NCBI RefSeq assembly: GCF_003350475.1 | Contig: NZ_QQAV01000013.1 | Span: forward strand, 62,001 to 126,000 | Direction of reading: 5' to 3' | From: Pseudacidovorax intermedius | GTDB lineage: Bacteria; Pseudomonadota; Gammaproteobacteria; Burkholderiales; Burkholderiaceae_C | DNA: 64,000 bases | Shown: positions 1 to 19,324 of the stretch, piece after piece | Layout of the letters: each line of letters starts with the position of its first letter | Position numbering within the stretch: the first letter of the stretch is position 1 | Program-made: the position numbers and the translations under genes | The notes under the pieces: generated by a model | What the model saw: the letters and a program-made list of their open reading frames with translations, nothing else | Databases searched by the model: none | What the model was told of the DNA's origin: nothing

Positions 1-742
1 CCGACTGCGCGACCGCCCGTCCCACGCCCTCGTACACCGGCCCGCGGAAGAGCTTGGCTGTGAAGACCTGGTGCGCCAACGCGGCAGGCACGCCGTGCGC
101 GCGCACCAGCGACATCGCCTCGGTCAGGGCGGCCACGGCACTGGCAATCAAGCCATTGCCCGCGAGCTTGACTGCACAGGCGGCGGCCGGGCCCGGCACC
201 TCGAAGACACGCGGCGCGAACGCCGCCAGCGCCTGGCGCACGGCCGCCAAGCGTTGGGCCGGCAGTGCGGGTGGCACGCCGACGACGGCCGTCAGATCGC
301 CGGCCCATGCCTCATCGGGACGGCCGAACACCGGGCAGGCGACGAAGTACTGGCCGGCCGCGTGGTGCCGCTCCGCCAGCGCCTCGGCGCACGCGCTGCC
401 GATGGTGCCGAGGCACACATGGACGCTGCCAGCCGGCAGGTGCGGGACGATGCCGGTCGCCATCCGGCCGTCGCCCTCCTCCTCACCCGCATCGCCGAAG
501 CAGACGGCACCCAGCGCGTCGCCATCGGTCACCGCGCTGAACCACAGGGCCGGCCCCGCTGGCCCGAGCGCCCCGCACAGCGCCTGCGCCGTCGCGCAGG
601 GCTCAGCCCCCTCGTCGCTGGCCAAGCCGGTGCGCGCCGGATCGATGTCCCAGGCCAGCGGTGCAAAGCCGTTGCGCGCCAGGCAGGCCGCCACCGCCAG
701 GCCCATGCGGCCGAGCCCGACCACCGCCACCCGGCCGCTCAC
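1..742 (-). CDS. 3-hydroxyisobutyrate dehydrogenase-like NAD(P)-binding protein (C-terminal end beyond window)
   Basis: The reading frame runs off the left edge, so the C-terminus is missing. It opens with a GTG at 742 that overlaps the TGA of the upstream flavoprotein gene (GTGA, 4 bases), which implies translational coupling. The N-terminus carries a Rossmann motif G-L-G-R-M-G at residues 9-14. Further on, a Lys followed by Asn four residues later (VKLAGN) matches the catalytic K-x3-N of the 3-hydroxyisobutyrate / tartronate-semialdehyde reductase superfamily. These enzymes oxidise or reduce a beta-hydroxyacid with NAD(P). A paralogue lies at 11225-12145 on the other arm of this divergent cluster. 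The substrate is unknown. Confidence 0.75.
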   Translation of the reverse strand, partial: MSGRVAVVGLGRMGLAVAACLARNGFAPLAWDIDPARTGLASDEGAEPCATAQALCGALGPAGPALWFSAVTDGDALGAVCFGDAGEEEGDGRMATGIVPHLPAGSVHVCLGTIGSACAEALAERHHAAGQYFVACPVFGRPDEAWAGDLTAVVGVPPALPAQRLAAVRQALAAFAPRVFEVPGPAAACAVKLAGNGLIASAVAALTEAMSLVRAHGVPAALAHQVFTAKLFRGPVYEGVGRAVAQS

Positions 743-2211
743 AGGGCCTCCGGCACTTCCACGCCCGACAGGCGCGGCGACACCAGCTCCGCCTCGCGGT
801 AGCCGTGCAGCGTGGGCAGCAGCGCGTCCTGCTGCTCGCGCATCAGCGCCCGCGTGATGCCGCCCACCAGACGCGGCACCGCGTACTTGTGGCCGCTGGA
901 GGACGTGGTGTGCGGCCCCATGCTCACCGTCGACGAGAAGTTGAAGGCATGCACGCGGCGCACCCACGCATCGCGAGCCGGGTCGAGCGGCTGGTATTCG
1001 AACCCGGTGCCCAGGTACGGGTACTCGCCCATGGCGTCGCTGCGCTCTGCCTCCGGCGGCATGTAGCGATGGCGCCAGCGCTGCACGCTGCCGCCGAGCG
1101 TGCGCAGTTCGTCGCGCGCGTCGTAGTCGACCACCGAGCCGGTGGCGCACAGCAGGTGGTCGAAGACGAAGTCAGCGTGGGGCGTGCGCACATGGATCTC
1201 GTCGCCCACCTGCCGCACGCGCGTCCACGGGGAGCCAGCATGCATGCGGAAGTTGCTGAAGGAATGCGCCAGGTCGAAACCATTCTGGGTGGGCGGCTGG
1301 TCGTGCACCTCGAAGAAGCGGTTGACCTGCCAGCGCGTGGCGTCGTCTAGCTCCGCGAAGTGCCGCAGAAAGCCCGAAAACTCGACGATGCGGTGCGGGT
1401 TGACCGTGGGCAGCTTCTCGCGCCGGAAGCACAGGTCGACCGACGCCGCGCCATGGGCCAGCAGCACGCAGGCGTTGTCGAAGGCCGATGCGCCGTGCCC
1501 CAGCACACCGACGCGCCGACCATTGAGCGCGGCGAAGTCGACCGGCCCGTTCGAATGGCTCACCTGGTGCGGCGCCACGGCGTCGGCGATGTGTGCGGGA
1601 ATGCGCCAGGCGCCCGCGCCGTCGTAACCCGTGGCCAGCACCACATGGCGGGCCAGCAGGGCTTCTTGCGGTGCATCTGCCGCGGCCGTCGAACGGATGC
1701 GCACCCGCAGCAGATCGCCCTCGGGCTCCAGCCCGACGCAGGCCGTGTCGTTGCGCACCGGCACACCGGTCATGCGCCGGAACCAGCGCAGGAACGCCAT
1801 CCACCGTGGCCGCTCGATGCGGTCGATGGCCGCCCAGGCGGCTTCGCCATAGCAGGCCCGGTAGAAGGCCGGCGCGGACAGGCTGGGCACGCCCGATTCG
1901 ATGCCGATGGTGCGCTTGGGCGTTCGCAGGTGCGACATGCGTGCAAAGTCTTCCCACACGCCCTCCTGCCCGGCGGGCCGGGCGTCGATCACCTGCACAT
2001 CGGCCACGCCCTCCCGCCGGAGCGCGAACGCAGCGGCCAGGCCCGCCTGGCCGCCCCCGACGACCAGCACGTCGTGCACATGTGCACCGGACGGGTGCGC
2101 GACAGGCCGCACCCAGTCGCGCCCCGGATAGGCCAGCAGGTCGAGTTCGGCCTGCACCTGGCGCTCCAGTTGGGCCAGGGTCGGGGCCTGCGGCTCAGCG
2201 TCGGTCGTCAT
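739..2211 (-). CDS. FAD/NAD(P)-dependent flavoprotein (monooxygenase-like), copy 1
   Basis: 490 aa. The ATG at 2211 is chosen because AAGGAG lies about 7 bases upstream; the frame stays open further upstream without a better site. A dinucleotide-binding motif G-G-G-Q-A-G at residues 52-57 is followed in mid-protein by a second one (G-H-G-A-S-A), the usual FAD-then-NADPH layout of flavin monooxygenase-like proteins. The protein is clearly paralogous to the product at 13009-14493: both begin with a LxYLAYP/LLAYPG-type segment ahead of the FAD motif. It is the penultimate gene of the minus-strand operon. The likely role is oxygenation or oxidation of the substrate imported by the adjacent ABC transporter. 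The substrate is not evident. Confidence 0.75.
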   Translation of the reverse strand: MTTDAEPQAPTLAQLERQVQAELDLLAYPGRDWVRPVAHPSGAHVHDVLVVGGGQAGLAAAFALRREGVADVQVIDARPAGQEGVWEDFARMSHLRTPKRTIGIESGVPSLSAPAFYRACYGEAAWAAIDRIERPRWMAFLRWFRRMTGVPVRNDTACVGLEPEGDLLRVRIRSTAAADAPQEALLARHVVLATGYDGAGAWRIPAHIADAVAPHQVSHSNGPVDFAALNGRRVGVLGHGASAFDNACVLLAHGAASVDLCFRREKLPTVNPHRIVEFSGFLRHFAELDDATRWQVNRFFEVHDQPPTQNGFDLAHSFSNFRMHAGSPWTRVRQVGDEIHVRTPHADFVFDHLLCATGSVVDYDARDELRTLGGSVQRWRHRYMPPEAERSDAMGEYPYLGTGFEYQPLDPARDAWVRRVHAFNFSSTVSMGPHTTSSSGHKYAVPRLVGGITRALMREQQDALLPTLHGYREAELVSPRLSGVEVPEAL

Positions 2212-2245
2212 GGTCGGCTCCTTGGGATTGAAGTGCTGCCGGGCC

Positions 2246-3028
2246 TCAGCCGTGCTGCGAGGCCTGCAGGAACTCGCGTGTGCGCGCGCTCTGCGGCGCG
2301 GTGAACATCGCCTCCGGCGTGCCAACCTCCACGATGCGGCCCTGCTCCATGAAGACGACGCGGTCGGCCACCTCGCGCGCGAAGCCGAGTTCGTGCGTCA
2401 CCACCAGCATCGTCATGCCCTCCTCGGCCAGCGCGCGCATCACGCGCAGCACCTCGCCCTTAAGTTCCGGGTCGAGCGAGGACGTGACCTCGTCGAAGAG
2501 CATCAGCTTGGGCCGCATGGCCAGAGCCCGGGCAATGGCGATGCGCTGCTGCTGCCCGCCCGACAGCGAGCGCGGATAGCTGTCGGCCTTGCTCGCCAGG
2601 CCGACCTTGTCGAGCAGCACCATCGCCTCGGCGCGCGCCACCGCGGGCGCAATGCCCTTGACGTGGATGGGTGCCTCGGTCACGTTCTGCAGCACCGTGA
2701 GATGCGGGAACAGGTTGAACTGCTGGAACACCATGCCGAGCTCGCGCCGCAGCAGGTTCAGCGCTTGTTCCGGCACGCGCTGGCGTATGGCGCCGCCGGC
2801 CGGCCCGTAGCCCACCGGGCGGCCATCGAACACCACCTCGCCGGCGTGGAAGGGTTCGAGAAAGTTCACGCAGGCCAGCAGGCTGCTCTTGCCCGAGCCC
2901 GAGGGGCCGATGACGACGACGACCTCGCCAGCCTGCACCGCGAGGTCGATGCCGTGCAGCACCTCGACCTCGCCATAGCGCTTGTGGAGGTTGGTGATGC
3001 GCAGGATGGGCGTGTTGGGCAATGTCAT
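2246..3028 (-). CDS. Polar amino acid-type ABC transporter, ATP-binding protein
   Basis: 260 aa, the usual length of GlnQ/HisP-type ATPases. Walker A is GPSGSGKSS at residues 41-49, followed by the signature LSGGQQQR and Walker [13 protein letters not shown]. It sits 9 bases downstream of the permease gene and forms a complete importer with the permease (3038-3691) and binding protein (4942-5700). The amidase gene is wedged between binding protein and permease, which ties transport to amide hydrolysis. By family, the substrate is a small polar, probably amino-acid-like or amide-containing molecule. The exact ligand cannot be read from sequence. Confidence 0.9.
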
Positions 3029-3037
3029 GGCGTCAGG

Positions 3038-3691
3038 TCACGTCACGCGGTAGCGCTTTTCGAGCCAGGCGTTGATGGCGATGAGCGGCAGCGTCAGCAG
3101 CAGGTAGCCCAGGGCCACGCCGGCGAAGGGGCTGAAGGTGTTGGCCTTCCAGCTCATGAAGTCCATGCCGGCGCGCAGCAGGTCGGAGATGGCGACGGTC
3201 GACACCAGCGAGGTGTTCTTGATGAGGCTGATCAGCTCATTGGTCACCGGCGGCAGCACGCGGCGCGCGGCCTGCGGCAGCACGATGCGGCGCATCGCCA
3301 GCGGGTAGGACATGCCGAGTGCGCGCGCCGCGCGCATCTGGCCGCCGTCGATCGACTCGATGCCGCCGCGCAGGATCTCGCTCATGTAGGCGCCGTTGGT
3401 GATGCCCAGGGCGAGCACGCCCACCGTGGTCGCATCGAGCAGCAGCCCGGCCGACGGCAGGCCGTAGTACAGGAAGAGCAGCGTGACCAGCACCGGCGTG
3501 GCGCGCATCAGCGTGACGTAGACCAGCGCCGGCAGCCGCAGCACACGCCGCGGCGACACGCGGGCCAGGCCGCCCAGGGTGCCGAGCACCAGCCCGACCA
3601 GCGCCGACAGCGCCGCGATCTGTGCGGTGACCACCATGCCCTTGAGCAGCGACGGAATCGCCGCCAGGAAGACGTCGAAGGAGAAATCCAT
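3038..3691 (-). CDS. Polar amino acid-type ABC transporter, permease
   Basis: 217 aa inner-membrane permease of the HisM/GlnP type with several hydrophobic segments. It contains the EAA-like loop with GALxMSYPLAMRRIVLPQA-type residues that couples to the ATPase. Only one permease gene is present, so the transporter probably works as a permease homodimer, as in GlnP-like systems. It lies 12 bases downstream of the amidase gene and 9 bases upstream of the ATPase gene in one transcription unit. Confidence 0.9.
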   Translation of the reverse strand: MDFSFDVFLAAIPSLLKGMVVTAQIAALSALVGLVLGTLGGLARVSPRRVLRLPALVYVTLMRATPVLVTLLFLYYGLPSAGLLLDATTVGVLALGITNGAYMSEILRGGIESIDGGQMRAARALGMSYPLAMRRIVLPQAARRVLPPVTNELISLIKNTSLVSTVAISDLLRAGMDFMSWKANTFSPFAGVALGYLLLTLPLIAINAWLEKRYRVT

Positions 3692-3703
3692 CCGCCCGGC
3701 CCG

Positions 3704-4945
3704 TCAGTGCGCGGCGCTTGCCAGGCCGAGCCGCTCCGACAGCAACCGCGCGCGCTGCAGAACGCCTTCGTCGTCGCCGCGCGCACCGATCACCGACAGG
3801 CCGACCGGCGCGCCCTCGCTGCGCATCCACGGCATGCTGAGCTGCGGCAGGCCGGCCAGGCCGGCGGGTGCGAGCATGCGGAAGGCGCGCGCGCGGATGT
3901 CGTTGACCGCGTCGAAGGACGCATCGAGGCTCGGCGCCGGCGTCGGCACCGTGGGCCAGACGATCACCGCGCCACCGGCCAGCACGCGCGCCATCGTGGC
4001 ATTGGCATCGACCCGCAGCCGCTGCATCTGGGCCACTTCGTCAAAGCGCACGCGCGCCGCGGCGTCGAAGCGCTGCGTCACGTCTTCGCCCATGTGCGGC
4101 TGTCGGCTGCGCACCCAGTCGCCCAGCTGCAGCCAGATCTCGCTCGCCTGCAGCACGCGGAAGGCGTTGGCCCAGTCGGCCAGTGGCAGCGTGCCCTCGG
4201 GCAGCATGGTGACGGGCGCCAGTTCACGCAACTGCGCAATGAGCGCCTCGTAGGCGGTACGCACCGGTGCGTCGAGCAATGGCATCACGTCGGCCGCGAC
4301 CACCAGGGGGCCGATGGCTCGCGCTTCCACGACGCGACTGCGCGCCAACTGCTCGAACACCCGGGCCATCGCATCGGCGTTGGTGGCGAACCAGCCCACG
4401 GTGTCGAAGCTGTGGGCCAGCGTGAAGCAGCCCTGGGCCGCGATGCGGCCGTGCGTGGGGCGCATGCCCCACACGCCGCAGTAGCTGGCAGGCAACCGCG
4501 TGGAGCCGCCGCAGTCGGTGCCCAGCGCGATGTCGGCATGACCAGCCGCAACGGCCACCACGGAGCCCGATGAGGAGCCGCCCGACAGCCGGTCCGGCAC
4601 CGCCGGGTTGGTCGGCTTGCCGTAGTGCGCGTTGTTGCCGGCCAGGCTGTAGGTCAGTTCGTCGGTGACGGTCTTGCCGACCCACTGCGCACCGGCATCG
4701 AGCAGAACGCGCACGGCCGGTGCCGATGACTTGGCCTCGGCCTGCTCGGCGAACCAGTCCGGCTGCCCCGCGCCCACACGCAGGCCTTCGACCTCGAACA
4801 CGTCCTTGACCGCGAGCCGCAGCCCGGCGAGCGGGCCGGCCTCGCCATGGACCTGCCTCAGCCGCAGGGCGCAGGCCTCATCGCTGCCATCGGAGACGAA
4901 GGCGCCGTGGCGTCCTGAAAGGGTCTGGAGCACGGCCGCGCTCAT
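3704..4945 (-). CDS. Amidase-signature family amidase
   Basis: 413 aa. The amidase-signature catalytic triad is visible: Lys47 in LAVKDVF, Ser124 in the GGSSSG loop (122-127), and the nucleophile Ser148 in GTDCGGSTR. Members hydrolyse a carboxamide to acid plus ammonia in the cytoplasm. The ATG at 4945 overlaps the TGA of the binding-protein gene (ATGA). The frame is open well beyond this point but reads through the binding-protein gene in another frame, so the overlapping ATG is the sensible start. Its position inside the ABC transporter operon suggests that the imported compound, or an early intermediate, is an amide or ureide. Confidence 0.88.
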   Translation of the reverse strand: MSAAVLQTLSGRHGAFVSDGSDEACALRLRQVHGEAGPLAGLRLAVKDVFEVEGLRVGAGQPDWFAEQAEAKSSAPAVRVLLDAGAQWVGKTVTDELTYSLAGNNAHYGKPTNPAVPDRLSGGSSSGSVVAVAAGHADIALGTDCGGSTRLPASYCGVWGMRPTHGRIAAQGCFTLAHSFDTVGWFATNADAMARVFEQLARSRVVEARAIGPLVVAADVMPLLDAPVRTAYEALIAQLRELAPVTMLPEGTLPLADWANAFRVLQASEIWLQLGDWVRSRQPHMGEDVTQRFDAAARVRFDEVAQMQRLRVDANATMARVLAGGAVIVWPTVPTPAPSLDASFDAVNDIRARAFRMLAPAGLAGLPQLSMPWMRSEGAPVGLSVIGARGDDEGVLQRARLLSERLGLASAAH

Positions 4946-5700: not shown

Positions 5701-5714
5701 GGATCGTCCTTCGG

Positions 5715-8140: not shown

Positions 8141-8371
8141 GCCCCGAGGCCCTTTGGCCGAGCCGCAGGGCCGTGCTGGGCGACAGCCATCCGATCTTCC
8201 TGTGAAGCTTCCCTGCGAAAAAGTCTGGGCATAGCCGACACCTATGGCTGACCTGCGCCCCGGCCGAAGGCTCCCAATTGCACCCTGCGGATGGCATGCG
8301 CTTTGCTGCGCGCCAAAGCGGCGCAAAGAGGCCGCCATAGGCCCTCTCAATGTTCTGCAGGATGGATTCCC
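8141..8371. promoter_or_regulatory. Divergent promoter region of the two catabolic arms
   Basis: 231 bases separate the divergent alpha/beta hydrolase (minus) and Rieske oxygenase (plus) genes, so promoters for both arms must lie here. There is no clear consensus -35/-10 pair. The most notable element is a CATAG-N7-CTATG dyad at 8230-8246. A weaker ATAG-N7-CAAT match lies at 8337-8351, just upstream of the Rieske start. Confidence 0.6.
8230..8246. promoter_or_regulatory. Candidate LysR-type operator (CATAG-N7-CTATG)
   Basis: Perfect 5-base inverted arms separated by 7 bases, containing the T-N11-A core (ATAG-N7-CTAT) typical of LysR-family sites. It lies in the middle of the divergent promoter region, where the LysR protein encoded at 12117-13019 would be expected to act. 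This is inferred from pattern and position only. Confidence 0.5.
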
Positions 8372-9559
8372 ATGGACGCGATCTTCGATTCGACCCGCTA
8401 CGACAACGTTCGGAAGCCTCTGCTGCAGGCGCATGGCCTGCCTGCCGATTGCTACCACGACGCCCGCTTCTTCCAACGCGAACTGGAGACCGTGTTCGCT
8501 CGCAGCTGGCTGATGGTGGGCCGTGCCGATCGCATTCCGAACACCGGCGACTTCTTCACGCATGACCAGGCGGGCCTGTCGCTGATCGTGATGCGAGACC
8601 GCGAAGGCGACATCCGCGCCTTCGTCAATGCATGCCGGCATCGCGGCGCGCGCCTTCTGGATGTGCCGGCAGGCCAGGCCTGCGGCAACGAGCGCGCCAT
8701 CGTCTGCCCGTATCACGCCTGGAGCTACAACCTCGAGGGCGAGCTGCGTGGATGTGCCGGCATGGAGGCGACGCAGGCTTTCGACCGCGCCGACTTCCCG
8801 CTGGTCGCTGCGCGCGTCGGCGTCAGCGATGGCTTCATCTGGGTCTGCCTCGACCACGGCGCGCCGCCGCTGCTCGAATGGCTGGGCGAGTTGCCCGACC
8901 GGCTGGCGATGTACCGGCTCGGCGACATGGTGGCCACGCGCATCGTCACGCACGACGTGGCCTGCAACTGGAAGGTGTGGGTCGAGAACTTCATGGAGGG
9001 CTACCACATCCCCACCGTGCACCGCGCCACCATCAGCAGCCACAAGGCCGTCAACCATCCCGAGGAGCCCAGCGGCAACGGCCAGTACACCGCCATCTTC
9101 GAGCAGCACGACGGCACGCTCGCCCTGCTTGACGGCGACGCCGGCTTTGCGCCCATCGAGAGCCTGCACGGCGAGTCGGTCCGCGGCAGCCGCTTCATGC
9201 TCGTCTACCCCGGCACCATGCTCGCGCTGACCATCGACACGATGTGGTCCTTTCAGTGCCTGCCGATGGGGCCGGAGCAGACGCGGATCGTCCACACCTC
9301 GATGTTCCCGCGCTCGCGCGTCGCGCAGCCCGACTTCGAGGAAGTCGCGCAGCGCTACTACAAGCGGCAGGACCGGGTGGTGGCCGAAGACAACGCCATC
9401 TCGGTGCAACAGCAGCGCGGCCTGCGCGCCGGCCCGGTGCATCCCGGGCGCTTCGCCGCCAAGGAACGCATCGTCCATGCACTGGACAACTGGGTCCTCG
9501 ACCGCGTGCTGGCACCAGCGCAGACCGCGACCATCCACCCGCTGAAGCGGAGCGCCTGA
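8372..9559 (+). CDS. Aromatic ring-hydroxylating (Rieske) oxygenase, alpha subunit
   Basis: 395 aa. The Rieske [2Fe-2S] ligands are Cys88/His90 (CRHRG) and Cys112/His115 (CPYHAW). The mononuclear iron site shows the NFMEGYHIPTVH motif with His212 and His217. Such proteins insert oxygen using electrons from a separate reductase. None is encoded nearby; the only reductase in the window, at 40397-41371, belongs to another operon. The ATG at 8372 follows a GGA-containing leader and is the first gene of the plus-strand arm. Its stop overlaps the next start by one base (TGATG). It may be a demethylase or hydroxylase rather than a dihydroxylating enzyme. Confidence 0.88.
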   Translation: MDAIFDSTRYDNVRKPLLQAHGLPADCYHDARFFQRELETVFARSWLMVGRADRIPNTGDFFTHDQAGLSLIVMRDREGDIRAFVNACRHRGARLLDVPAGQACGNERAIVCPYHAWSYNLEGELRGCAGMEATQAFDRADFPLVAARVGVSDGFIWVCLDHGAPPLLEWLGELPDRLAMYRLGDMVATRIVTHDVACNWKVWVENFMEGYHIPTVHRATISSHKAVNHPEEPSGNGQYTAIFEQHDGTLALLDGDAGFAPIESLHGESVRGSRFMLVYPGTMLALTIDTMWSFQCLPMGPEQTRIVHTSMFPRSRVAQPDFEEVAQRYYKRQDRVVAEDNAISVQQQRGLRAGPVHPGRFAAKERIVHALDNWVLDRVLAPAQTATIHPLKRSA

Positions 9560-10245
9560 TGGACGGCCCCCTCGCCATCGACGCGAGACCCGGCGCGGTG
9601 CATTGGCGCGCGGACGAGACCGCGCTGATCGTCGTCGACATGCAGAACGGCTTTCTCAAGCCGGGCGGGTACTTCGACAACGTGGGCTACGACCTGGCGC
9701 ATGCACCGCACACCGTGGCGCAGGTGGTGGCCGCCGTGGCGGCGGCGCGCCAGGTCGGCGTGCAGGTGATCTTCATCCAGAGCGGCTTCGACGCGATGCA
9801 CCTGTGCGTGGGCGGCGCCACCGCGCCGGTGTGGCACAAGTCGGAAGCGCAGGTGCTGATGCGCGAGCGTCCCGAGCTGGCACGCCGGCTCATCACCGAC
9901 GGCACCTGGGACTATGAACTGGTGGAAGAGATGGCGCCCGCGGCCGACGAGCCGGTGATCCGCAAGTCCCGCTACAGCGCCTTCGCCGGCACCAGCCTTG
10001 ACCAGCTCTTGCGCGCCCGGCGCATGCGCAACCTCGTCTTCTGCGGCGTGGCCGCGAACGTCTGCGTGGAGACCAGCCTGCGCGATGCCTACGGGCACGA
10101 GTACTTCGTGCTGCTGCTGGAAGACGCGACGCACCATGCCGGCCCCGACTTCCTGCGGCAGGCGACGCTGTGGAACGTGGAGCGCTTCTTCGGCTGGGTG
10201 GCGCCGGTGGCGGCCTGGCAGAGCGCGACCGGGGCCGCACGATGA
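9559..10245 (+). CDS. Isochorismatase-fold cysteine hydrolase, RutB-like (ureidoacrylate amidohydrolase-like)
   Basis: 228 aa. Its catalytic triad is Asp27 (IVVDMQNGF), Lys136 (IRKSRYSAF) and Cys169 (VAANVCVE). The sequence resembles E. coli RutB, as I recall it, over almost its full length: PGGY, HKS, WDYELV and DATHHAGP segments with NxExFFGWV near the C-terminus. RutB hydrolyses ureidoacrylate to carbamate and aminoacrylate in uracil breakdown. No RutA-type ring-opening monooxygenase or other Rut protein is encoded here, so the substrate may be another carbamoyl or ureido acid. The start overlaps the upstream stop (TGATG) and the stop overlaps the next ATG (ATGA). Confidence 0.85.
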   Translation: MDGPLAIDARPGAVHWRADETALIVVDMQNGFLKPGGYFDNVGYDLAHAPHTVAQVVAAVAAARQVGVQVIFIQSGFDAMHLCVGGATAPVWHKSEAQVLMRERPELARRLITDGTWDYELVEEMAPAADEPVIRKSRYSAFAGTSLDQLLRARRMRNLVFCGVAANVCVETSLRDAYGHEYFVLLLEDATHHAGPDFLRQATLWNVERFFGWVAPVAAWQSATGAAR

Positions 10246-11228
10246 GCGCCGCCGCCAAGATCATGGCCGGGCGCGAGAGCGTGCGCGTGGCCGTCGTCCA
10301 GACGCCGCCGGTCTTCCTCGACCTCGAGCGCTCCATCGACAAGGCCTGCCGCAAGATCGCCGAGGCGGCCGCGGGCGGTGCCTCGCTGGTGGTGTTCAGC
10401 GAGAGCTGGCTGGCCGGCTATCCCTACTGGGACGAAGGCTGGAACAGCAACTCGCACGCCTGGGTGGCCGTGCGCAGCCGCTTTTTCGACAACGCCCTGC
10501 TGATTCCCAGCGCGCAGAGCCAGCGCCTGTGCGAGGCGGCGGCGCAGAGCGGCGTGACGGTCGTCATCGGCTGCAACGAGCTCGACGCCCGCCCGGGCGT
10601 GCACACGCTCTACAACACGATGCTCACCATCGGCGACGACGGCCGCATCATGGGCAAGCACCGCAAGCTGCGGCCGACCTTCGTCGAATCGGCCTTCTGG
10701 GGCCAGGGCGCGGGCGACGACCTGTATGTGCACGAAACGGCCGTCGGCCGCGTGGGCGGACTGATCTGCGGCGAGCATGTGATGACCCTGGCGCGGGCGC
10801 GCATGATCTCGCAGGGCGAGGACTTCCACATCGCGCTCTATCCCGGCGCGTTCAACGTGTGGAGCGGCCCGAAGATGCAGGTGGAAGACCCGGACGGCAG
10901 CCACTTCATCGGCTATGCCTCGTGCCGGGCGCATGCCAACGAGGCCGGCGCCTTCGTGATCTGCGCGGTCGGGCTGATCGACGAGGCGTCGATTCCTGCC
11001 GACTTTCCGATGCGCGATTCGCTCAACATCTCGTATGCGCGCGGCGGCAGCATGGTGATCGCGCCGGCCGGCGTGCCGCTGGTCGGCCCGATGTACGGCG
11101 ACACCATCGTCTATGCCGATTGCCCGGCCCGCATGATCAAGCTGTCGAAGGCGATCATCGACACCAACGGGCACTATGGGCGGCCCGACGTTCTTTCGCT
11201 GCGCTACCACCCCGAGGAGCGCGCATGA
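10242..11228 (+). CDS. Nitrilase-superfamily carbon-nitrogen hydrolase
   Basis: 328 aa with the Glu-Lys-Cys triad of the nitrilase superfamily: Glu54 (VFSESW), Lys142 (KHRKLRPT) and Cys176 (LICGEHV). The residues around the Cys (C-G-E-H) and the GYPYWD segment after the Glu resemble the true nitrilase branch more than beta-ureidopropionase. Glycine replaces the Trp usually found after the catalytic Cys in nitrilases. The enzyme would hydrolyse a nitrile or an N-carbamoyl/amide group. It overlaps its neighbours by ATGA at both ends and follows the RutB-like gene directly. Confidence 0.87.
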   Translation: MSAAAKIMAGRESVRVAVVQTPPVFLDLERSIDKACRKIAEAAAGGASLVVFSESWLAGYPYWDEGWNSNSHAWVAVRSRFFDNALLIPSAQSQRLCEAAAQSGVTVVIGCNELDARPGVHTLYNTMLTIGDDGRIMGKHRKLRPTFVESAFWGQGAGDDLYVHETAVGRVGGLICGEHVMTLARARMISQGEDFHIALYPGAFNVWSGPKMQVEDPDGSHFIGYASCRAHANEAGAFVICAVGLIDEASIPADFPMRDSLNISYARGGSMVIAPAGVPLVGPMYGDTIVYADCPARMIKLSKAIIDTNGHYGRPDVLSLRYHPEERA

Positions 11229-12145
11229 ATGGGCCCGCCGCGGCCCATGTCGAAGGCGCCCTGTTCGGCCGCGCCGGGCTCGCCGACCACGCACCCGTGT
11301 TGGTTATCGGGCTTGGCACGATGGGCCTGCCGATTGCGCAGCGGCTACGCGCGGCCGGTGTGCCGGTCTGGGGCATGGACAGTCGGCCAGAGTTGCACGA
11401 CGCGCTCCCCGGCGCCCGGGTGCTCACGTCCGGACCGTTGCGCGACGCGGTGCACGCGAGCCGCGCCGCCACCGTCATCACCTGCGTCAGCGACGAAGCC
11501 GCACTGCAGCGCCTGTGGCAGGCACCGGGCGGGTTGCACGAGGCGCTCGTGCCCGGCCTCTGCGTCGTCGACCACACGACGACCTCGGTTCCCGCGGCAC
11601 TGCAGTTCGCCGCCGAGGCCGCGCAGGCGGGTGCGATGTGGGTCGATGCACCGCTCTCCGGCGCGGCCGCTGGCGCGCGCGCGGGAACGCTGTCCGCCAT
11701 GCTCGGCGGCGAGCCGGAAGCGGTCGAGCATGTGCGCGCCCTGCTCTCTGCCTACTGCGCCACCCTCACCCACCTGGGCCCGGCCGGCGCAGGCCAGGCG
11801 GGCAAGCTGACCAACCAGATCGCCATCGCGGGCATCAACGCCGGCCTGCTGGCCGCCACGGGCTTTGCGGCCCTGCAGGGCCTCGACATCGCGCGCTGCT
11901 TCGATGCAATGGCTGCCGGTAGCGCCCATTCCGTGCAGATGGCCCAGCACCGCGCGGCACTGACGCGGGCGCCGGCCGACAGCACCCTGTTCGACTGGCT
12001 CCGGCGCGACCTGGCGCTGGTGCTGGAACACCTTCCCGTCGACGAGGCTGCTGCGACGCGCGGCGCCTCGCAAGCCCTGCACGACCGGCTCCACGCCCTG
12101 AACCGAATGCTTCTCGATGGAACTGCGGCACCTCCGTTACTTTGA
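11225..12145 (+). CDS. 3-hydroxyisobutyrate dehydrogenase-like protein, copy 2
   Basis: 306 aa. The NAD(P) motif GLGTMG occurs at residues 29-34, the substrate-binding stretch DAPLSGA at 141-147, and the catalytic Lys194 with Asn197 in GKLTNQ. It belongs to the beta-hydroxyacid dehydrogenase family and is a paralogue of the partial gene at 1-742. The ATG overlaps the nitrilase TGA (ATGA). The 3' end overlaps the LysR gene by 29 bases. It probably handles a C3-C4 hydroxyacid or semialdehyde released after the amide-cleaving steps. Confidence 0.82.
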   Translation: MNGPAAAHVEGALFGRAGLADHAPVLVIGLGTMGLPIAQRLRAAGVPVWGMDSRPELHDALPGARVLTSGPLRDAVHASRAATVITCVSDEAALQRLWQAPGGLHEALVPGLCVVDHTTTSVPAALQFAAEAAQAGAMWVDAPLSGAAAGARAGTLSAMLGGEPEAVEHVRALLSAYCATLTHLGPAGAGQAGKLTNQIAIAGINAGLLAATGFAALQGLDIARCFDAMAAGSAHSVQMAQHRAALTRAPADSTLFDWLRRDLALVLEHLPVDEAAATRGASQALHDRLHALNRMLLDGTAAPPLL

Positions 12146-13019
12146 GGCGATCGCTGCGACCGGGAACGTCACCCGGGCCGCCGCCACGCTCCACATCTCG
12201 CAGCCTTCGCTGAGCCAGGCCATCAAGGAGCTGGAAGCCGAGGTGGGCATGCCGCTGCTGGTGCGGGGGCCGCGCGGCAGCGTGCTGACCGAAGCCGGGC
12301 GGGAGTTCATCAAGCACGCCAGCGACATCCTGGAGCGCGTGTCGGCCGCGCGCGATGCCAGCCGTCGCGCCGCGCATGGCGCCGCCGGCCAACTGGTGGT
12401 GGCCGTCACGGGCTCCAGCGTGTTCGACGTGGTGCCCGAGCTGATCCGCCAGGCCGCCGAGCACATGCCGGAGGTCTCGCTGCGGCTGGTCGAGATGCTG
12501 ACGGACAAGCAGATCGAGGCGCTGTACGCGCGGCGCGTCGACGTCGCCATCGGCCGGGCCCTGCGCAACGAGCCGGGCCTCACCTCGCGCGTGATCGCCA
12601 GGCGCTCCTTCATGGTCGCGGTGCACGTGCGGCATCCGCTGGCGCGGCAACGCAGCATCACGCTCGACGACCTGCGCAACGAGCCGCTCATCACCCCGCA
12701 GCGGCGGCTCGGCCCCGGCTTCCATGCGCAGCTGATGACGCTGCTCACGCGCGCCAAGCTCAATCTGCAGATCGCGCACGAGGTCACCCACATGCCCACC
12801 GTGCTGGGCCTGGTGGCGGCCGGCCTGGGCCTGGGCATCGTCAGCGACGAACTGCGCGACCTGGAAGTGCGGGACGTCGTCTACCGGCCACTGTTCGAAG
12901 GCCACGACGCGCTTGAACTCGCCGTGTCCTGGCGTCTGGACAACCCTTCCGTGGCGCTGGCGCAGTTCGTCGGCCTCTGTCGCAACCCTTCCTCCCTGGA
13001 GATTCCCCATGCCCCCTGA
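12117..13019 (+). CDS. LysR-family transcriptional regulator
   Basis: 300 aa with a canonical N-terminal winged HTH (residues 1-60, TRAAATLHISQPSLSQAIKELE) and a C-terminal effector domain. It is encoded inside the plus-strand catabolic arm rather than divergently. It overlaps the dehydrogenase by 29 bases upstream and the flavoprotein gene by 11 bases downstream, so regulator and enzymes are made from one message. The likely target is the 8141-8371 divergent promoter, which has a T-N11-A dyad at 8230-8246. The inducer is presumably a pathway intermediate. Confidence 0.88.
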   Translation: MELRHLRYFEAIAATGNVTRAAATLHISQPSLSQAIKELEAEVGMPLLVRGPRGSVLTEAGREFIKHASDILERVSAARDASRRAAHGAAGQLVVAVTGSSVFDVVPELIRQAAEHMPEVSLRLVEMLTDKQIEALYARRVDVAIGRALRNEPGLTSRVIARRSFMVAVHVRHPLARQRSITLDDLRNEPLITPQRRLGPGFHAQLMTLLTRAKLNLQIAHEVTHMPTVLGLVAAGLGLGIVSDELRDLEVRDVVYRPLFEGHDALELAVSWRLDNPSVALAQFVGLCRNPSSLEIPHAP

Positions 13020-14493
13020 CTCGCTCGAGGCGCTGAGCGCGCGCGTGCAGCGCGACCTCAGCTACCTGGCCTATCCCGCCAAGCCCTGGGTGCTCGACTT
13101 CGACGCCGCCCGGCTGCGTGACATGGGCGTCGACGCCGCGCCCGAGGCGGTGCTGCACTGCGCCATCGTCGGCGGCGGGCAGTTCGGCCTGACCATCGCG
13201 CATGGCCTGCGGCGCGAGTGCGTCGACCGCGTGCGGGTGTTCGAGAAGAACCCGCGCGGCCTCGAAGGACCATGGATGACCTTCGGCCGCATGAAGATGC
13301 TGCGCACGCCCAAGGATCCGACGGGCCATGACCTCGGCAACGCGAGCCTCACCTTCCGCGCCTGGTACGAGGCGCAGCACGGCGCCGAGGGCTGGGAGCA
13401 GCTCTTCCGCATCAATCGCCCCGACTGGCAGGCCTACCTGGGCTGGTACCGCGAGGTGACCGGCATCGACATGGTCAACGAGGTCGAGGTCACCGCCGTG
13501 GAGCCCTGGCCCAGCGCGGCCGACTGCCAGCTGTTCCGGCTCACGGTCCGCGGCAAGGACCGGACCGACACGGTGTGGGCCCGCACCGTGGTCTTTTCAG
13601 GGGGCGCGGAAGCCTCGGGCGGCCATGTCGTGCCGGAGTTCATCAGCGAGCACCTGCCCCAGAACCTCTATGCCCACACCAGCGATTGGCCGATCGACTT
13701 CCGCCGCTTCGAGGGCAAGCGGGTCGGCCTGCTCGGCTCCGGCGCGGCGGCCTTCGACGCCGCCATCGCCGCGCTGGAGGCGGGCGCGCGCGAGGCGGTG
13801 CTGTGCTTTCGCCGCCCCGCCCTGCCCCGGACGAACCCGCGGCGCTGGATGGAGTTCGCCGGCTTTCTGGCGCACTACCCCGAGCTGCCGGACGACCAGC
13901 GCTGGGCCTACATGCAGGAGCTCTACCGCATCGGCCAGCCACCCCCGGTGCCGACCTTCGACCGCGCGGTCAGCCTGCCCGGCTTCGTCATGAAGGCGTC
14001 GACGCCCTGGCTGGCCGTGCGCGAGGACGCGGGCCAGGTGCTGGTCGACACGCAGCAGGGCCAGGAGCGCTTCGACTTCGTCTTTGCGGCCACCGGCGCC
14101 TTCGTGGACCTGGCGCAGCGGCCGGAGTTTGCCGGGCTGCTGCCATACGCAGCGCTGTGGGCCGACCGCCATGTGCCGGCTGCCTCGAAGGCCGAACCTC
14201 GGCTGGGCCGCTTCCCCTACCTCGGCCGCTTCGGCGAGTTCACCGAGAAGACGCCGGGCTGCGCACCCTGGCTGGACCACCTGTTCACGACCACGCGGGG
14301 CGCGACGCTCTCGTTGGGCCCCAGCGCGGCATCGAACAGCAACATCAAGTACACGGCACCGCGCGTGATCTCCGGCGTGACGCGCGCACTCTTCCTGGAC
14401 GATGCCCCCGAGCATGGGCGCCGCTTCGCGACGGCCAACCACGACGAGCTGGCACCGGACAAGCTGCAGGCCATGATGGACCACGCCGCCTGA
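13009..14493 (+). CDS. FAD/NAD(P)-dependent flavoprotein (monooxygenase-like), copy 2
   Basis: 494 aa. The ATG at 13009 follows CTGGAG and overlaps the LysR stop by 11 bases. The FAD motif G-G-G-Q-F-G is at residues 55-60 and a second nucleotide-binding motif G-S-G-A-A-A occurs in mid-protein. It is paralogous to the product at 739-2211, with a shared N-terminal layout, an RxPKxxxG-type segment and a TRGAT/VSMGPHTTS-like C-terminal loop. Having one copy per arm suggests two related oxidation steps or two substrates. A gap of 8 bases separates it from the next gene. Confidence 0.78.
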   Translation: MPPDSLEALSARVQRDLSYLAYPAKPWVLDFDAARLRDMGVDAAPEAVLHCAIVGGGQFGLTIAHGLRRECVDRVRVFEKNPRGLEGPWMTFGRMKMLRTPKDPTGHDLGNASLTFRAWYEAQHGAEGWEQLFRINRPDWQAYLGWYREVTGIDMVNEVEVTAVEPWPSAADCQLFRLTVRGKDRTDTVWARTVVFSGGAEASGGHVVPEFISEHLPQNLYAHTSDWPIDFRRFEGKRVGLLGSGAAAFDAAIAALEAGAREAVLCFRRPALPRTNPRRWMEFAGFLAHYPELPDDQRWAYMQELYRIGQPPPVPTFDRAVSLPGFVMKASTPWLAVREDAGQVLVDTQQGQERFDFVFAATGAFVDLAQRPEFAGLLPYAALWADRHVPAASKAEPRLGRFPYLGRFGEFTEKTPGCAPWLDHLFTTTRGATLSLGPSAASNSNIKYTAPRVISGVTRALFLDDAPEHGRRFATANHDELAPDKLQAMMDHAA

Positions 14494-14501
14494 AGCGTGC
14501 G

Positions 14502-15551
14502 ATGACCGAAGTCCACTGGTTCGACATGGCACACCCGGCCGACTACGCCGGGCTGCAGGCCTTGATCGGCGACCCCGATTCGGTGGCGCGGCTGGCGGTG
14601 CTGGTCAAGACCGAGGGCCACACGGCCACCAACGACTTCGCTCGGCAACTGTCGCGCACCGCGTTGGATCCGCTGCTGGCGCCCTGGACTGTGGCCGGAC
14701 GCGCCGTCGCCGTGTTGGCCAATGGCTGCGAAGGCGTGGCGACCCCGGGCGGCTATGCGCTGATCGAGCGCCGCTCCGCGCGAGCGCATGACGGCCCGGG
14801 GCTGCGCCTGGGCATCGCGCGTTCGGCCGCGCTGCCACCGGCTGTCGTCGGCGAGCCCGAAGCCATCGATGCGGTCGCCGCCTGCGTGAGCGCCGCCTGT
14901 GCCGACGCCGGCCTCGCTGCGGACCAGGTCGCCCTCGCCATCCTGAAATGTCCGACGCTGCTCGCCAGCCGCTGCGCCGGCTCGCCGCACCGCAGCGACC
15001 AGCACCGCGGGCGCGCCATCGCCGCGCTCGGGGCCGCGGTGGCGTTGGGCGAGATCGACCGCGCCCGCATCGGGCCCGACGCGATCGCGAACGATCCGAC
15101 CCTGCGCAGCGCCAAGGCGATGACCTTTGCCGGCCCGGAACAGGAAGCGGTTGAGGCCGTCGTGCTCGGCCATGCCAACGGAACCAACGGCCGGCCGGGT
15201 GCGGTGCGCCTGGGCGTCTGCCATCCCCGCGACATGCTCGACACCGCCAGCATCCGTCGGCTGGCGATGTCGCTGGGCCTGCGTTTCGACGAGGCCGGCG
15301 AACTGACCGAGCCCAAGCGTCTGCTGGCCGTCTTCAGCAAGGCCGGGCCGACGCCGGACGGGCGGGTGCGTGGCGCCCGCACGGGTGTCTTCACCTCGGC
15401 GTACTCGCCGGACAGCCACATGCGCGCGGCGCAGTCGGGCCTGCTGGGTGGCCTGTTCGGCAGCACGCGCTTCTTCGTCTCCGGCGACCCCGTCCAGCAG
15501 GCTCCACCGGGCGGCGGCGTGGTCGCCCTGATCGTCAAAGGCCAGCCATGA
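14502..15551 (+). CDS. Ring-opening amidohydrolase of the cyanuric acid hydrolase / barbiturase (AtzD) family, divergent
   Basis: 349 aa, the usual length of this family. The three-fold repeated domains each keep the expected Lys: Lys36 (VLVKTEG), Lys149 (ILKCP) and Lys280 (FSKAGPTPDG). The third-domain Ser327 (VSGDPVQQAPPGGG) is also kept. The equivalents of the first and second catalytic serines appear replaced: ANGCEG (Ala73) where I recall SGGTEG in AtzD, and FAG (Phe209) where I recall SAG. Family members hydrolyse cyclic amides such as cyanuric acid or barbiturate. This protein may open a different ring or have altered chemistry. The stop overlaps the next ATG (ATGA). Confidence 0.82.
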   Translation: MTEVHWFDMAHPADYAGLQALIGDPDSVARLAVLVKTEGHTATNDFARQLSRTALDPLLAPWTVAGRAVAVLANGCEGVATPGGYALIERRSARAHDGPGLRLGIARSAALPPAVVGEPEAIDAVAACVSAACADAGLAADQVALAILKCPTLLASRCAGSPHRSDQHRGRAIAALGAAVALGEIDRARIGPDAIANDPTLRSAKAMTFAGPEQEAVEAVVLGHANGTNGRPGAVRLGVCHPRDMLDTASIRRLAMSLGLRFDEAGELTEPKRLLAVFSKAGPTPDGRVRGARTGVFTSAYSPDSHMRAAQSGLLGGLFGSTRFFVSGDPVQQAPPGGGVVALIVKGQP

Positions 15552-16459
15552 CCGAACCTGCTTCGCCCCTGCGCATACTGCCCACGCACGGGCGCTACGA
15601 CTATTCGCCCATCGTCGACCGCCCAACCTACCAATGGCCCAACGGCGCCCGGCTCGCCTTCTATGTCGCCTTGAACATCGAGGCCTTCCCCTTCGGCGAG
15701 GGCATGGGCCCCGAGCTGAACCCGCGCCAGCCCGAGCCCGACGTGGTGAACCACACCTGGCGCGACTGGGGCAACCGCGTGGGCATCTGGCGGCTGGTGG
15801 AACTGCTCGATGAGTTCGACCTGCCCGCCAGCGCCCTGCTCAACACTGCCATTTACGACAGCTGCCCGCAGATCGCGCAGGCGCTGCGGCGGCGCGGCGA
15901 CGAGATCGTGGGCCACGGCCACACCAACGCCGAGCGCCAGGCCGAGATGGATGCGGAAGCCGAAGCGCGCATGATCGAGAACGTCACCGCCCGGCTCCGC
16001 GCCGAAGAAGGCAAAGCGCCGAAGGGATGGATGGGCCCGTGGGTCAACGAAACCGTGCGCACGCCCGACCTGCTGGCGCGCAACGGCTACGCCTACGTCA
16101 TGGACTGGATGATGGACGACCAGCCGGTGATGCTGCGTACCGCACACGGACCCCTGGTGGCGCTGCCCTACGCCCGGCCGACGAACGACATCACGGCGCT
16201 GCACGGCGCCAAATGGACGCCCCAGGAATGGGCCGACATGCTCATCGACCAGGTGGACGAGATGCTGCGGCAGTCACGGCGGCAGCCGCTGGTCTTCAAT
16301 GTGTCGTTGCATCCCTATTTGATGCACGCCTTTCGGCTCAAGCACCTGCGGCGATTCTTCGAATACCTGGCGACCGTGCGCAATGAGCTGTGGGTGGCGC
16401 GGTGTGCGGATATTGCGCTGTTTGCCAAAGCGGAAATGGAGGGGTTGGGCGGCAGATGA
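15548..16459 (+). CDS. Polysaccharide deacetylase-fold hydrolase (PuuE-like)
   Basis: 303 aa. The NodB-type barrel is suggested by GHGHTNAERQ, GWMGPW and VFNVSLHPYLMHAFR segments. The canonical first metal motif (TFDDG) is absent; a NIEAF segment stands in its place, as in PuuE-like allantoinases and related cyclic-imide hydrolases rather than sugar deacetylases. It is the last gene of the plus-strand arm and overlaps the AtzD-like gene by ATGA. In this setting a hydrolytic step on a cyclic ureide or imide is more plausible than cell-wall work. It ends 34 bases from the convergent catB-like gene. Confidence 0.8.
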   Translation: MTEPASPLRILPTHGRYDYSPIVDRPTYQWPNGARLAFYVALNIEAFPFGEGMGPELNPRQPEPDVVNHTWRDWGNRVGIWRLVELLDEFDLPASALLNTAIYDSCPQIAQALRRRGDEIVGHGHTNAERQAEMDAEAEARMIENVTARLRAEEGKAPKGWMGPWVNETVRTPDLLARNGYAYVMDWMMDDQPVMLRTAHGPLVALPYARPTNDITALHGAKWTPQEWADMLIDQVDEMLRQSRRQPLVFNVSLHPYLMHAFRLKHLRRFFEYLATVRNELWVARCADIALFAKAEMEGLGGR

Positions 16460-18210: not shown

Positions 18211-18231
18211 GGTCGGCGAGAGGGGCGGGGG

Positions 18232-18252
18232 TGCATAACGGCATGTTATGCA
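18232..18252. promoter_or_regulatory. Perfect palindromic LysR operator
   Basis: TGCATAAC-N5-GTTATGCA, with 8-base perfect arms and a 5-base spacer. It contains ATAAC-N5-GTTAT, which satisfies T-N11-A. It is centred 32 bases upstream of the LysR start and 92 bases upstream of the Bug protein start, the classic position for a LysR autoregulatory and activating site. Confidence 0.7.
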
Positions 18253-18333
18253 GATCGCGCGTCTTGGTATTTCACGGCAAGCCCGCAAGCGGCCATGATC
18301 CCGGCCGTTGCGAAAGACGGAGACACGCATTCC

Positions 18334-19320: not shown

Positions 19321-19324
19321 GTCG

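What the first reader, a model, noticed from the sequence alone, without database searches (positions are those of the whole stretch)
1..16459. Divergent cluster predicted to degrade an unidentified nitrogen heterocycle
Seen: two arms from one promoter region carry a Rieske oxygenase, two flavoproteins, five kinds of C-N hydrolase (amidase, amidohydrolase, RutB-like, nitrilase, AtzD/barbiturase-like), a PuuE-like deacetylase fold, two beta-hydroxyacid dehydrogenases, an ABC importer and a LysR regulator, nearly all with overlapping starts and stops. Known: RutB, AtzD/barbiturase and PuuE families act on ureido acids and cyclic ureides. Inference: the cluster imports, oxidises, ring-opens and deaminates a cyclic amide/ureide (pyrimidine-, barbiturate- or imide-like). 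I know of no described pathway with this gene set.
Basis: partly seen in the sequence, partly recalled or inferred. Interest (0 to 1): 0.8.

Follow-up and report, generated by a model that had tools for sequence, protein, structure and literature searches.

The report
Unknown nitrogen-ring degradation gene module
About thirteen bacterial genes, found together in differing order in several genomes, probably break down an unidentified nitrogen-rich ring compound, in part through a nitrile; the searches made here found no description of this combination.

Summary
The gene set is real. Two divergent arms share a 231-bp gap with a perfect LysR-type dyad, CATAG-N7-CTATG. The cluster runs past the window's left edge; an NMT1-type binding protein and an AllA-like gene belong to it.

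Of ten loci with a 53-98% Rieske relative, nine carry the module, in other orders in six. Of 71 loci with only a distant Rieske relative, none carries its diagnostic genes.

New points: (1) the slot of the nitrilase holds a fused nitrile hydratase in three loci, which suggests a nitrile intermediate. (2) FMO1 resembles amine N-hydroxylases in predicted fold. (3) The AtzD-fold protein has lost the catalytic serine of cyanuric acid hydrolase/barbiturase in ten of ten copies. (4) The RutB-, PuuE-, AllA- and AtzD-like proteins miss their NCBIfam cut-offs.

Best reading: a catabolic module, not found described, for an amine-bearing cyclic ureide, with an oxime/nitrile branch and a RutB-like decarbamoylation. 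Substrate unknown; no activity shown; two loci lack the nitrile branch.

The parts
1..742 (-). HADH1, beta-hydroxyacid dehydrogenase family (NAD_binding_2); GTG start at 742, runs about 0.24 kb past the window's left edge (L005:13762-14742)
   Evidence: Pfam; full gene; below the NCBIfam cut-offs listed (L-threonate dehydrogenase 81 bits vs 350, HIBADH 75 vs 292); 44-56% in G056, L047, L049, L051
739..2211 (-). FMO1, FAD/NAD(P)H monooxygenase with a predicted fold nearest to amine N-hydroxylases
   Evidence: Pfam; AlphaFold pLDDT 87.8, pTM 0.88; Foldseek ranks 1-46 of the 50 shown are SidA/PvdA/KtzI/DfoA/DesB/putrescine-hydroxylase entries
2246..3028 (-). ABC importer ATPase
   Evidence: Pfam; 62-65% in L045, L047, L048
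3038..3691 (-). ABC importer permease
   Evidence: Pfam; 68-69% in L045, L048
3704..4945 (-). Amidase-signature hydrolase (passes NF006169 'amidase', 495 bits vs 391)
   Evidence: among the ten loci found only in L043 and L044
4942..5700 (-). Periplasmic binding protein, SBP_bac_3 family
   Evidence: 59-60% in L045, L047, L048
5715..7211 (-). Amidohydrolase of the TRZ/ATZ deaminase type (below the cut-offs of the 25 NCBIfam families shown)
   Evidence: 45-47% in L045, L048
7208..8140 (-).
   Evidence: 42-52% in G056, L047, L049, L051
8141..8371 (.). 231-bp divergent intergenic region (with the Rieske start taken at 8372)
   Evidence: gene starts
8230..8246 (.). LysR-type dyad CATAG-N7-CTATG (T-N11-A form, recalled), presumed operator for both arms
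   Evidence: 1 match in window, 0 in 100 shuffles; perfect in L043, L044, one mismatch in G056
8337..8351 (.). Second, imperfect ATAG-N7-CTAT match (one mismatch) in the same gap
   Evidence: also one mismatch at the same place in L043 and L044; not tested against chance
8372..9559 (+). Rieske non-haem iron oxygenase alpha subunit; no reductase gene recognised in the cluster
   Evidence: Pfam; Rieske CxH and CxxH and the His-x4-His region kept in ten of ten copies compared
9559..10245 (+). RutB-like isochorismatase-fold amidohydrolase, the most conserved enzyme of the set (71-82% in seven loci outside the genus)
   Evidence: RutB equivalog 270 bits vs cut-off 378
10242..11228 (+). Branch-1 nitrilase; the slot is taken by a fused nitrile hydratase in L047, L049, L051
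11225..12145 (+). HADH2, 3-hydroxyisobutyrate/tartronate-semialdehyde reductase family
   Evidence: 40-50% in seven loci outside the genus
12117..13019 (+). LysR-family regulator
   Evidence: 71% in G056; in L045 and L047-L051 nothing nearer than one 25% match
13009..14493 (+). FMO2, paralogue of FMO1 (about 36-42% between the groups)
   Evidence: 58-73% in seven loci outside the genus and in G253
14502..15551 (+). AtzD/TrzD (Toblerone) fold protein with two of three active-site serines lost
15548..16459 (+). PuuE-like polysaccharide-deacetylase-fold protein, candidate cyclic amide hydrolase
   Evidence: (87 bits vs cut-off 425); 58-76% in G056, L045, L047-L050

Best explanation
This is a LysR-controlled catabolic module for one nitrogen-rich heterocycle, most likely an amine-bearing cyclic ureide. 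Shown by sequence: an importer (and, just outside the window, a second binding protein), a Rieske oxygenase, two flavoprotein monooxygenases of which one was modelled and resembles amine N-hydroxylases, a nitrilase or nitrile hydratase, several C-N hydrolases and two beta-hydroxyacid dehydrogenases, kept together in the window's genus and seven other genomes. Inferred: the substrate is imported; the Rieske enzyme and FMO2 oxidise it; FMO1 N-hydroxylates an amine which, by way of an oxime, becomes a nitrile that the nitrilase (or the nitrile hydratase) turns into acid (or amide); PuuE-like and AtzD-fold proteins open or process the ring; the RutB-like enzyme splits the resulting ureido acid into carbamate and amine; the AllA-like protein acts on a ureido intermediate; the dehydrogenases reduce the leftover semialdehyde, as happens at the end of the uracil (Rut) pathway (recalled). 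Order of steps and substrate are not shown.
For: Module in nine of ten related loci, in other orders in six of them. Of 71 control loci (Rieske at most 35%; 8 of them shorter than 10 kb) none has FMO1, FMO2, RutB-like, AtzD, PuuE-like, AllA-like, nitrilase, nitrile hydratase, NMT1 binding protein or alpha/beta hydrolase by the criterion used. Nitrilase and fused nitrile hydratase occupy the same slot between the RutB-like and HADH2 genes, with 4-base overlaps on both sides in the window and in L047 (coordinates); the hydratase has the CTLCSC motif in three of three. Seven of seven loci with the nearer FMO1 group have a nitrile enzyme in the cluster (three of the seven are one genus). FMO1 model: Foldseek ranks 1-46. 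RutB-like residues kept in nine of nine further copies, with a uniformly changed loop. LysR dyad.
Against: No activity, expression or metabolite data. No aldoxime dehydratase was recognised in the cluster, so the oxime-to-nitrile step has no enzyme. L045 and L048 carry the core without FMO1 or a nitrile enzyme in the stretches read (L048 is cut by a contig end), so the nitrile branch is not obligatory. FMO1 copies of the farther group in G253, L182 and L184 have no nitrile enzyme in the stretches read. Sequence search of FMO2 hit Baeyer-Villiger enzymes, weakly (best E 2.3e-6); N-hydroxylation rests on fold rank for FMO1 alone. The wider FMO family occurs in other contexts. No reductase for the Rieske enzyme was recognised. 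The hydratase scores below the NCBIfam alpha-subunit cut-off (228 vs 250) and also matches thiocyanate hydrolase gamma (187 vs 291).
Confidence: 0.5

Rival explanations
1. A variant of pyrimidine (Rut-like or oxidative barbiturate) catabolism: the substrate is uracil, thymine or barbiturate, opened and decarbamoylated by the RutB-like enzyme.
For: RutB is the nearest solved relative (E 2.7e-65) and plasmid genes annotated RutB match at 48-50%; catalytic residues kept; hydroxyacid dehydrogenases fit a malonate-semialdehyde end (recalled); the NMT1 protein's best PDB hit binds a thiamin-type pyrimidine (E 1.2e-12).
Against: No RutA, C, D or F recognised in the arms. RutB equivalog cut-off missed (270 vs 378); the loop QNGWDEQYVEAGG of RutB is QSGFDAxHLxVGG in ten of ten copies. 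Barbiturase nucleophile lost. Does not need a nitrile enzyme.
Confidence: 0.13
2. Catabolism of a man-made nitrile or nitrile-forming compound (pesticide or drug) by a recently assembled cluster.
For: Nitrile enzymes; patchy distribution (2 of 150 family genomes, the own one included, have a close Rieske orthologue); gene order varies.
Against: Copies outside the genus are mostly 40-82% identical and vary in order and in nitrile enzyme, which suggests an old natural substrate. No transposase among the arm genes scanned, though no dedicated search for mobile elements was made.
Confidence: 0.12
3. Two or more separate pathways that merely lie together: a core (Rieske, RutB-like, HADH2, FMO2, AtzD-fold, PuuE-like, AllA-like) and an independent nitrile branch (FMO1, HADH1, alpha/beta hydrolase, nitrile enzyme).
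For: L045 and L048 have the core alone, and their FMO1-like genes (49-50%) lie elsewhere in their genomes, within 10 kb of molybdenum-hydroxylase genes in L182 and its near copy L184; G253 has FMO1, FMO2 and PuuE-like genes without the rest nearby.
Against: The nitrilase overlaps core genes on both sides; branch and core occur together in seven of seven loci with the nearer FMO1 group; one gap with LysR-type dyads serves both arms.
Confidence: 0.15

Closest known systems
Rut pyrimidine pathway (RutABCDEFG)
   Same: RutB-like amidohydrolase with the catalytic residues kept; reduction of a semialdehyde is a plausible end step (recalled)
   Different: No RutA/C/D/F recognised; RutB cut-off not met; changed loop; nitrile enzymes, two FMOs and a Rieske oxygenase added
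Cyanuric acid hydrolase/barbiturase (AtzD/TrzD, Toblerone fold)
   Same: Same predicted fold over the full length (TM 0.83-0.86 for the ten best matches); the three Lys and the Arg residues kept
   Different: Nucleophile Ser (Ser226 in PMC4051656, Ser231 in PMC6557486) is Phe (4 copies), Ile (5) or Val (1); domain-A Ser is Ala in ten of ten; only the domain-C Ser-Lys pair remains
Urate/allantoin pathway (PuuE allantoinase, AllA ureidoglycolate lyase)
   Same: PuuE- and AllA-like proteins; one FMO relative (L153) adjoins OHCU decarboxylase and lies near a PuuE-like gene
   Different: No urate-oxidation or OHCU genes recognised in the cluster; PuuE 87 vs 425 bits and AllA 36 vs 230 bits
Aldoxime-nitrile pathways (oxime, then nitrilase or nitrile hydratase/amidase; recalled)
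   Same: An FMO with N-hydroxylase-like fold together with a nitrilase or nitrile hydratase, and an amidase in the window
   Different: No aldoxime dehydratase recognised; embedded among ureide-type enzymes

Membership tests
Cyanuric acid hydrolase/barbiturase | Toblerone fold | tested here: met
   AlphaFold pLDDT 86.1, pTM 0.90; Foldseek best 4nq3, TM 0.84; Pfam Amido_AtzD_TrzD 199 bits vs 25
Cyanuric acid hydrolase/barbiturase | Ser226-Lys156 dyad, absolutely conserved in the 119 family members examined by PMC4051656 (passages read) | tested here: not met
   Ser is Phe in 4, Ile in 5, Val in 1 of ten copies; Lys kept; both own-genome paralogues keep Ser
Cyanuric acid hydrolase/barbiturase | NCBIfam cut-offs (NF052395 360 bits, TIGR02714 153 bits) | tested here: not met
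   196 and 142 bits
RutB ureidoacrylate amidohydrolase | Catalytic Asp-Lys-Cys (residues recalled) | tested here: met
   Asp of VDMQN, Lys of KSRY and Cys of GVAAN(V/A)C kept in the window and nine of nine further copies
RutB ureidoacrylate amidohydrolase | TIGR03614 equivalog cut-off 378 bits | tested here: not met
   270 bits
Rut pathway | RutA, RutC, RutD, RutF beside RutB | tested here: not met
   none recognised among the arm genes scanned with Pfam; the rest of the genome was not searched for them
PuuE allantoinase | TIGR03212 cut-off 425 bits | tested here: not met
   87 bits; best PDB match is PuuE 3cl6, E 7e-20
AllA ureidoglycolate lyase | NCBIfam cut-offs of the eight models matched, 160-315 bits | tested here: not met
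   at most 36 bits
Branch-1 nitrilase | Glu-Lys-Cys residues and nitrilases as nearest solved relatives | tested here: met
   PDB hits 1-13 of 31 are nitrilases, cyanide dihydratases/hydratases and NIT4; motifs; Nit6803-family equivalog cut-off missed, 190 vs 503 bits
Branch-1 nitrilase | hydrolyses a nitrile | not testable with these tools
   no assay
Nitrile hydratase (L047, L049, L051) | alpha-subunit motif CxxCSC, alpha and beta parts | tested here: met
   CTLCSC in 3 of 3; Pfam alpha and beta_N, run on L047 only
Nitrile hydratase (L047) | TIGR01323 alpha-subunit cut-off 250 bits | tested here: not met
   228 bits; thiocyanate hydrolase gamma 187 bits vs 291
Amine N-hydroxylating monooxygenase (FMO1) | fold nearest to the SidA/PvdA class | tested here: met
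   Foldseek ranks 1-46 of 50 shown, TM 0.61-0.65 by query length, 14-17% identity; second aligner not available
Amine N-hydroxylating monooxygenase (FMO1) | hydroxylates an amine nitrogen | not testable with these tools
   no assay
HpyO urate hydroxylase | homology to Xanthomonas HpyO | not tested
   HpyO sequence not at hand; PMC4562309 passages say it is an FAD enzyme using NAD(P)H, of another family than HpxO

The most novel reading that the evidence does not exclude
The module degrades a modified nucleobase that carries an aminomethyl group or a nitrile, for example a 7-deazaguanine (preQ1, preQ0, queuine) or a 5-aminomethyluracil from tRNA: FMO1 turns the amine into a nitrile, the nitrilase or hydratase removes it, and purine/pyrimidine-type ring openers finish the job, with a Toblerone-fold enzyme whose active site has moved to its third Ser-Lys pair. 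I know of no described route for breaking down such bases (recalled; the one search on it gave three papers that by title do not concern this).
Probability: 0.12. Interest if true: 0.85.

Novelty: new variant of a known kind. Interest (0 to 1): 0.6.

Why it matters
The window's genus and seven other genomes keep a set of divergent C-N hydrolases with a Rieske oxygenase and flavoprotein monooxygenases for a substrate that is not known. If the nitrile step is real, it joins ureide and nitrile chemistry in one pathway and says which chemical group to look for in the substrate. The AtzD-fold copies without the serine that a published analysis found invariant in the family are a directly testable case of an enzyme that changed its active site, and name transfer by fold or Pfam would wrongly suggest a cyanuric acid hydrolase or barbiturase.

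Tried and rejected
Barbiturase/cyanuric acid reading: rejected on the lost nucleophile. Rut operon: rejected on missing rut genes in the arms and the failed cut-off. FMOs as urate hydroxylases of the HpyO type: one relative (L153) adjoins OHCU decarboxylase and lies near a PuuE-like gene, but of the 28 matches in the 34-41% tier I fetched 21 (L151-L155, L166-L181; several short) and it is the only one with these genes adjacent (L166 has a 28% OHCU-like match about 6 kb away), so the family is not diagnostic. Genome-wide nitrile hydratase as evidence: 7 of 7 genomes without the nitrilase orthologue have one and 0 of 4 with it do, but 70 of 300 genomes of the order have one anyway, so I rely only on the copies inside the cluster. 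Plasmid collection: 580 records match the RutB-like protein, all below 60%. Literature: no paper holds all three terms or four of five terms; the listings show no paper that by title describes this gene set. Passages were read of PMC4562309, PMC4051656 and PMC6557486; no paper was read whole. Papers outside the library, preprints included, are not covered. The Rieske scan needs exact short peptide matches and can miss orthologues. L148 (G253) and L186 are partial sets and are not counted among the nine.
Full report
Observation. The window is positions 62001-126000 of contig C13 (156,764 bp) of a 5.98-Mb genome. Two Pseudacidovorax records carry the cluster at 83-99% protein identity, so the host is probably that genus (inference). 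An alpha/beta hydrolase heads the left arm and was not listed. The left arm ends outside the window; next to it, convergent, lie an AllA-like gene and an NMT1-type binding protein. I count both as part of the module because relatives lie inside the cluster in other loci: both in G056, where they follow the PuuE-like gene, AllA-like in eight and NMT1-type in nine of the nine module loci (the NMT1 matches in L045, L047, L048, L049 and L051 are only 34-37%). Nine of 14 gene junctions overlap and five have gaps of 8-34 bp (amidase start corrected by eye).

Regulation. The 231-bp gap between the arms holds CATAG-N7-CTATG, a dyad of the T-N11-A form typical of LysR proteins (recalled). It is the only match in 64 kb and none occurs in 100 shuffles. 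It is perfect in L043 and L044 and has one mismatch in G056; a second match with one mismatch lies at 8337-8351 of the window, and likewise in L043 and L044. These four have the LysR gene. L045 and L047-L051 have no LysR match nearer than one at 25%, and their few one-mismatch dyads do not lie in gaps between divergent module genes (gene coordinates).

Conservation. A Rieske search of 150 genomes of the family, the own one included, found a close orthologue (72%) only in G056; the one other genome of the genus drawn has none. A scan of one genome per species kept the best 80 of 394 loci: nine at 53-98% identity and 71 at 35% or less. Of the nine plus G056, nine carry the module. The tenth, L046, has the Rieske gene but no other query gene in its 6 kb, while its genome holds FMO2, AllA-like, binding-protein and ATPase relatives (48-69%) on a 3.4-kb contig. 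Of the 71 control loci, 8 are shorter than 10 kb; none has FMO1, FMO2, RutB-like, AtzD, PuuE-like, AllA-like, nitrilase, nitrile hydratase, NMT1, SBP3, permease, amidase, HADH1 or alpha/beta hydrolase; 35 have a LysR, 19 an ATPase, two a weak HADH2 and one a weak amidohydrolase match. Gene order in L045, L047, L048, L049, L050 and L051 differs from the window's. In L051 the PuuE match is a distant one (31%) and no AllA-like gene was found in the stretch. The PAAT-type importer, amidase and amidohydrolase of the window are missing in G056. An FMO2 search of 399 genomes of the order found copies at 60-68% in three besides the own genome: two are the genomes of L049 and L050, the third, G253, has PuuE-like, FMO2 and FMO1 genes and no other query gene in 34 kb.

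Nitrile step. The window nitrilase has nitrilases and cyanide-converting enzymes as its 13 best PDB hits. In L047 the gene between the RutB-like and HADH2 genes, overlapping both by 4 bases, is a single-chain protein with nitrile hydratase beta-N and alpha parts (coordinates); L049 and L051 have relatives at 70-75% in the same slot. L050 has a more distant nitrilase (37%) between FMO2 and AtzD. Two unrelated families that share nitriles as substrates in one slot is the argument for a nitrile intermediate (inference). Against it: L045 and L048 have none in the stretches read, L048 being cut by a contig end, and the hydratase is below the NCBIfam cut-off and also resembles thiocyanate hydrolase gamma.

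FMO1 and the nitrile enzymes. FMO1 copies fall into a nearer group (61-97% to the window: L043, L044, G056, L047, L049, L051) and a farther one near 50% (L050, G253, and the genomes of L045 and L048 at L182 and L184). The seven loci of the nearer group, the window included, all have a nitrile enzyme in the cluster; three of the seven are one genus. Of the four of the farther group only L050 has one in the stretch read. In L182 a xanthine-dehydrogenase-type enzyme and a VanA-type Rieske gene lie within 10 kb of FMO1; L184 is a near copy. The FMO1 model has amine N-hydroxylases at Foldseek ranks 1-46 of the 50 shown. Together this suggests amine to oxime to nitrile to acid or amide (inference; no aldoxime dehydratase recognised). 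FMO2 was not modelled; its sequence search gave weak Baeyer-Villiger hits.

AtzD-fold protein. Ten of ten module copies lost the domain-A serine (Ala) and the domain-B serine (Phe in the window, G056, L043, L044; Ile in L045, L047, L048, L049, L051; Val in L050), while 5t13, 6bum and both own-genome paralogues keep them. By 6bum numbering the latter is Ser231, given as the strictly conserved nucleophile (PMC6557486, passages); in the Azorhizobium enzyme the matching Ser226 dyad is the only absolutely conserved one and S226A loses about 10^9-fold activity (PMC4051656, passages). The domain-C serine, the lysines and the arginines remain, and the predicted fold is intact. So the protein may use its third Ser-Lys pair or do other chemistry.

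Other enzymes. The RutB-like protein keeps the catalytic residues (recalled) but differs from RutB in one loop in all ten copies. RutB-, PuuE-, AllA-, AtzD- and nitrilase-type proteins miss the NCBIfam cut-offs; of the ten proteins of that call only the amidase passes one, an unspecific model. The NMT1 protein's best PDB match is a thiamin-pyrimidine-binding protein, followed by THI5-type enzymes; this is weak evidence on the ligand.

Verdict. A real and conserved module, not found described by the searches made, most likely for one amine-bearing cyclic ureide with a nitrile branch. Substrate and step order remain open; confidence 0.5.

Noticed in passing
L006:13320-14384 and L007:10489-11658 (own genome, contig C1): Two further AtzD-family genes with intact Ser-Lys dyads, one near NMT1 binding proteins, isochorismatases and an amidohydrolase, the other near a PuuE-like gene and an amidase.
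   Followed up: partly
L047:11882-12934: Single-chain protein with nitrile hydratase beta-N and alpha parts in a catabolic gene row.
   Followed up: partly
L153:3539-12191: FMO1 relative (41%) in a row with OHCU decarboxylase, PuuE-like, class-V aminotransferase, M20 peptidase, gamma-glutamyltranspeptidase and amidase genes; a candidate urate-type operon.
   Followed up: partly
L182:2788-17571 and L184: Farther-group FMO1 gene within about 12 kb of a xanthine-dehydrogenase-type molybdenum enzyme, VanA-type Rieske, metallo-beta-lactamase-fold and TRAP transporter genes.
   Followed up: partly
L046 and L186: A genome titled Rhodospirillales holds a 53% Rieske relative beside an NMT1 protein and an M24 peptidase, and FMO2/AllA-like/binding-protein relatives on another contig.
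   Followed up: no
L166:9920 onward (own genome, contig C6): A third FMO paralogue (38-39%) with two ABC ATPase genes downstream.
   Followed up: no
window 17755-20641: TctC-type receptor followed by a FAD_oxidored protein downstream of the right arm, on the same strand; relation to the module unknown.
   Followed up: no
L005:10930-11814: A 294-aa open frame without a Pfam match at the threshold used, left of the NMT1 gene.
   Followed up: no
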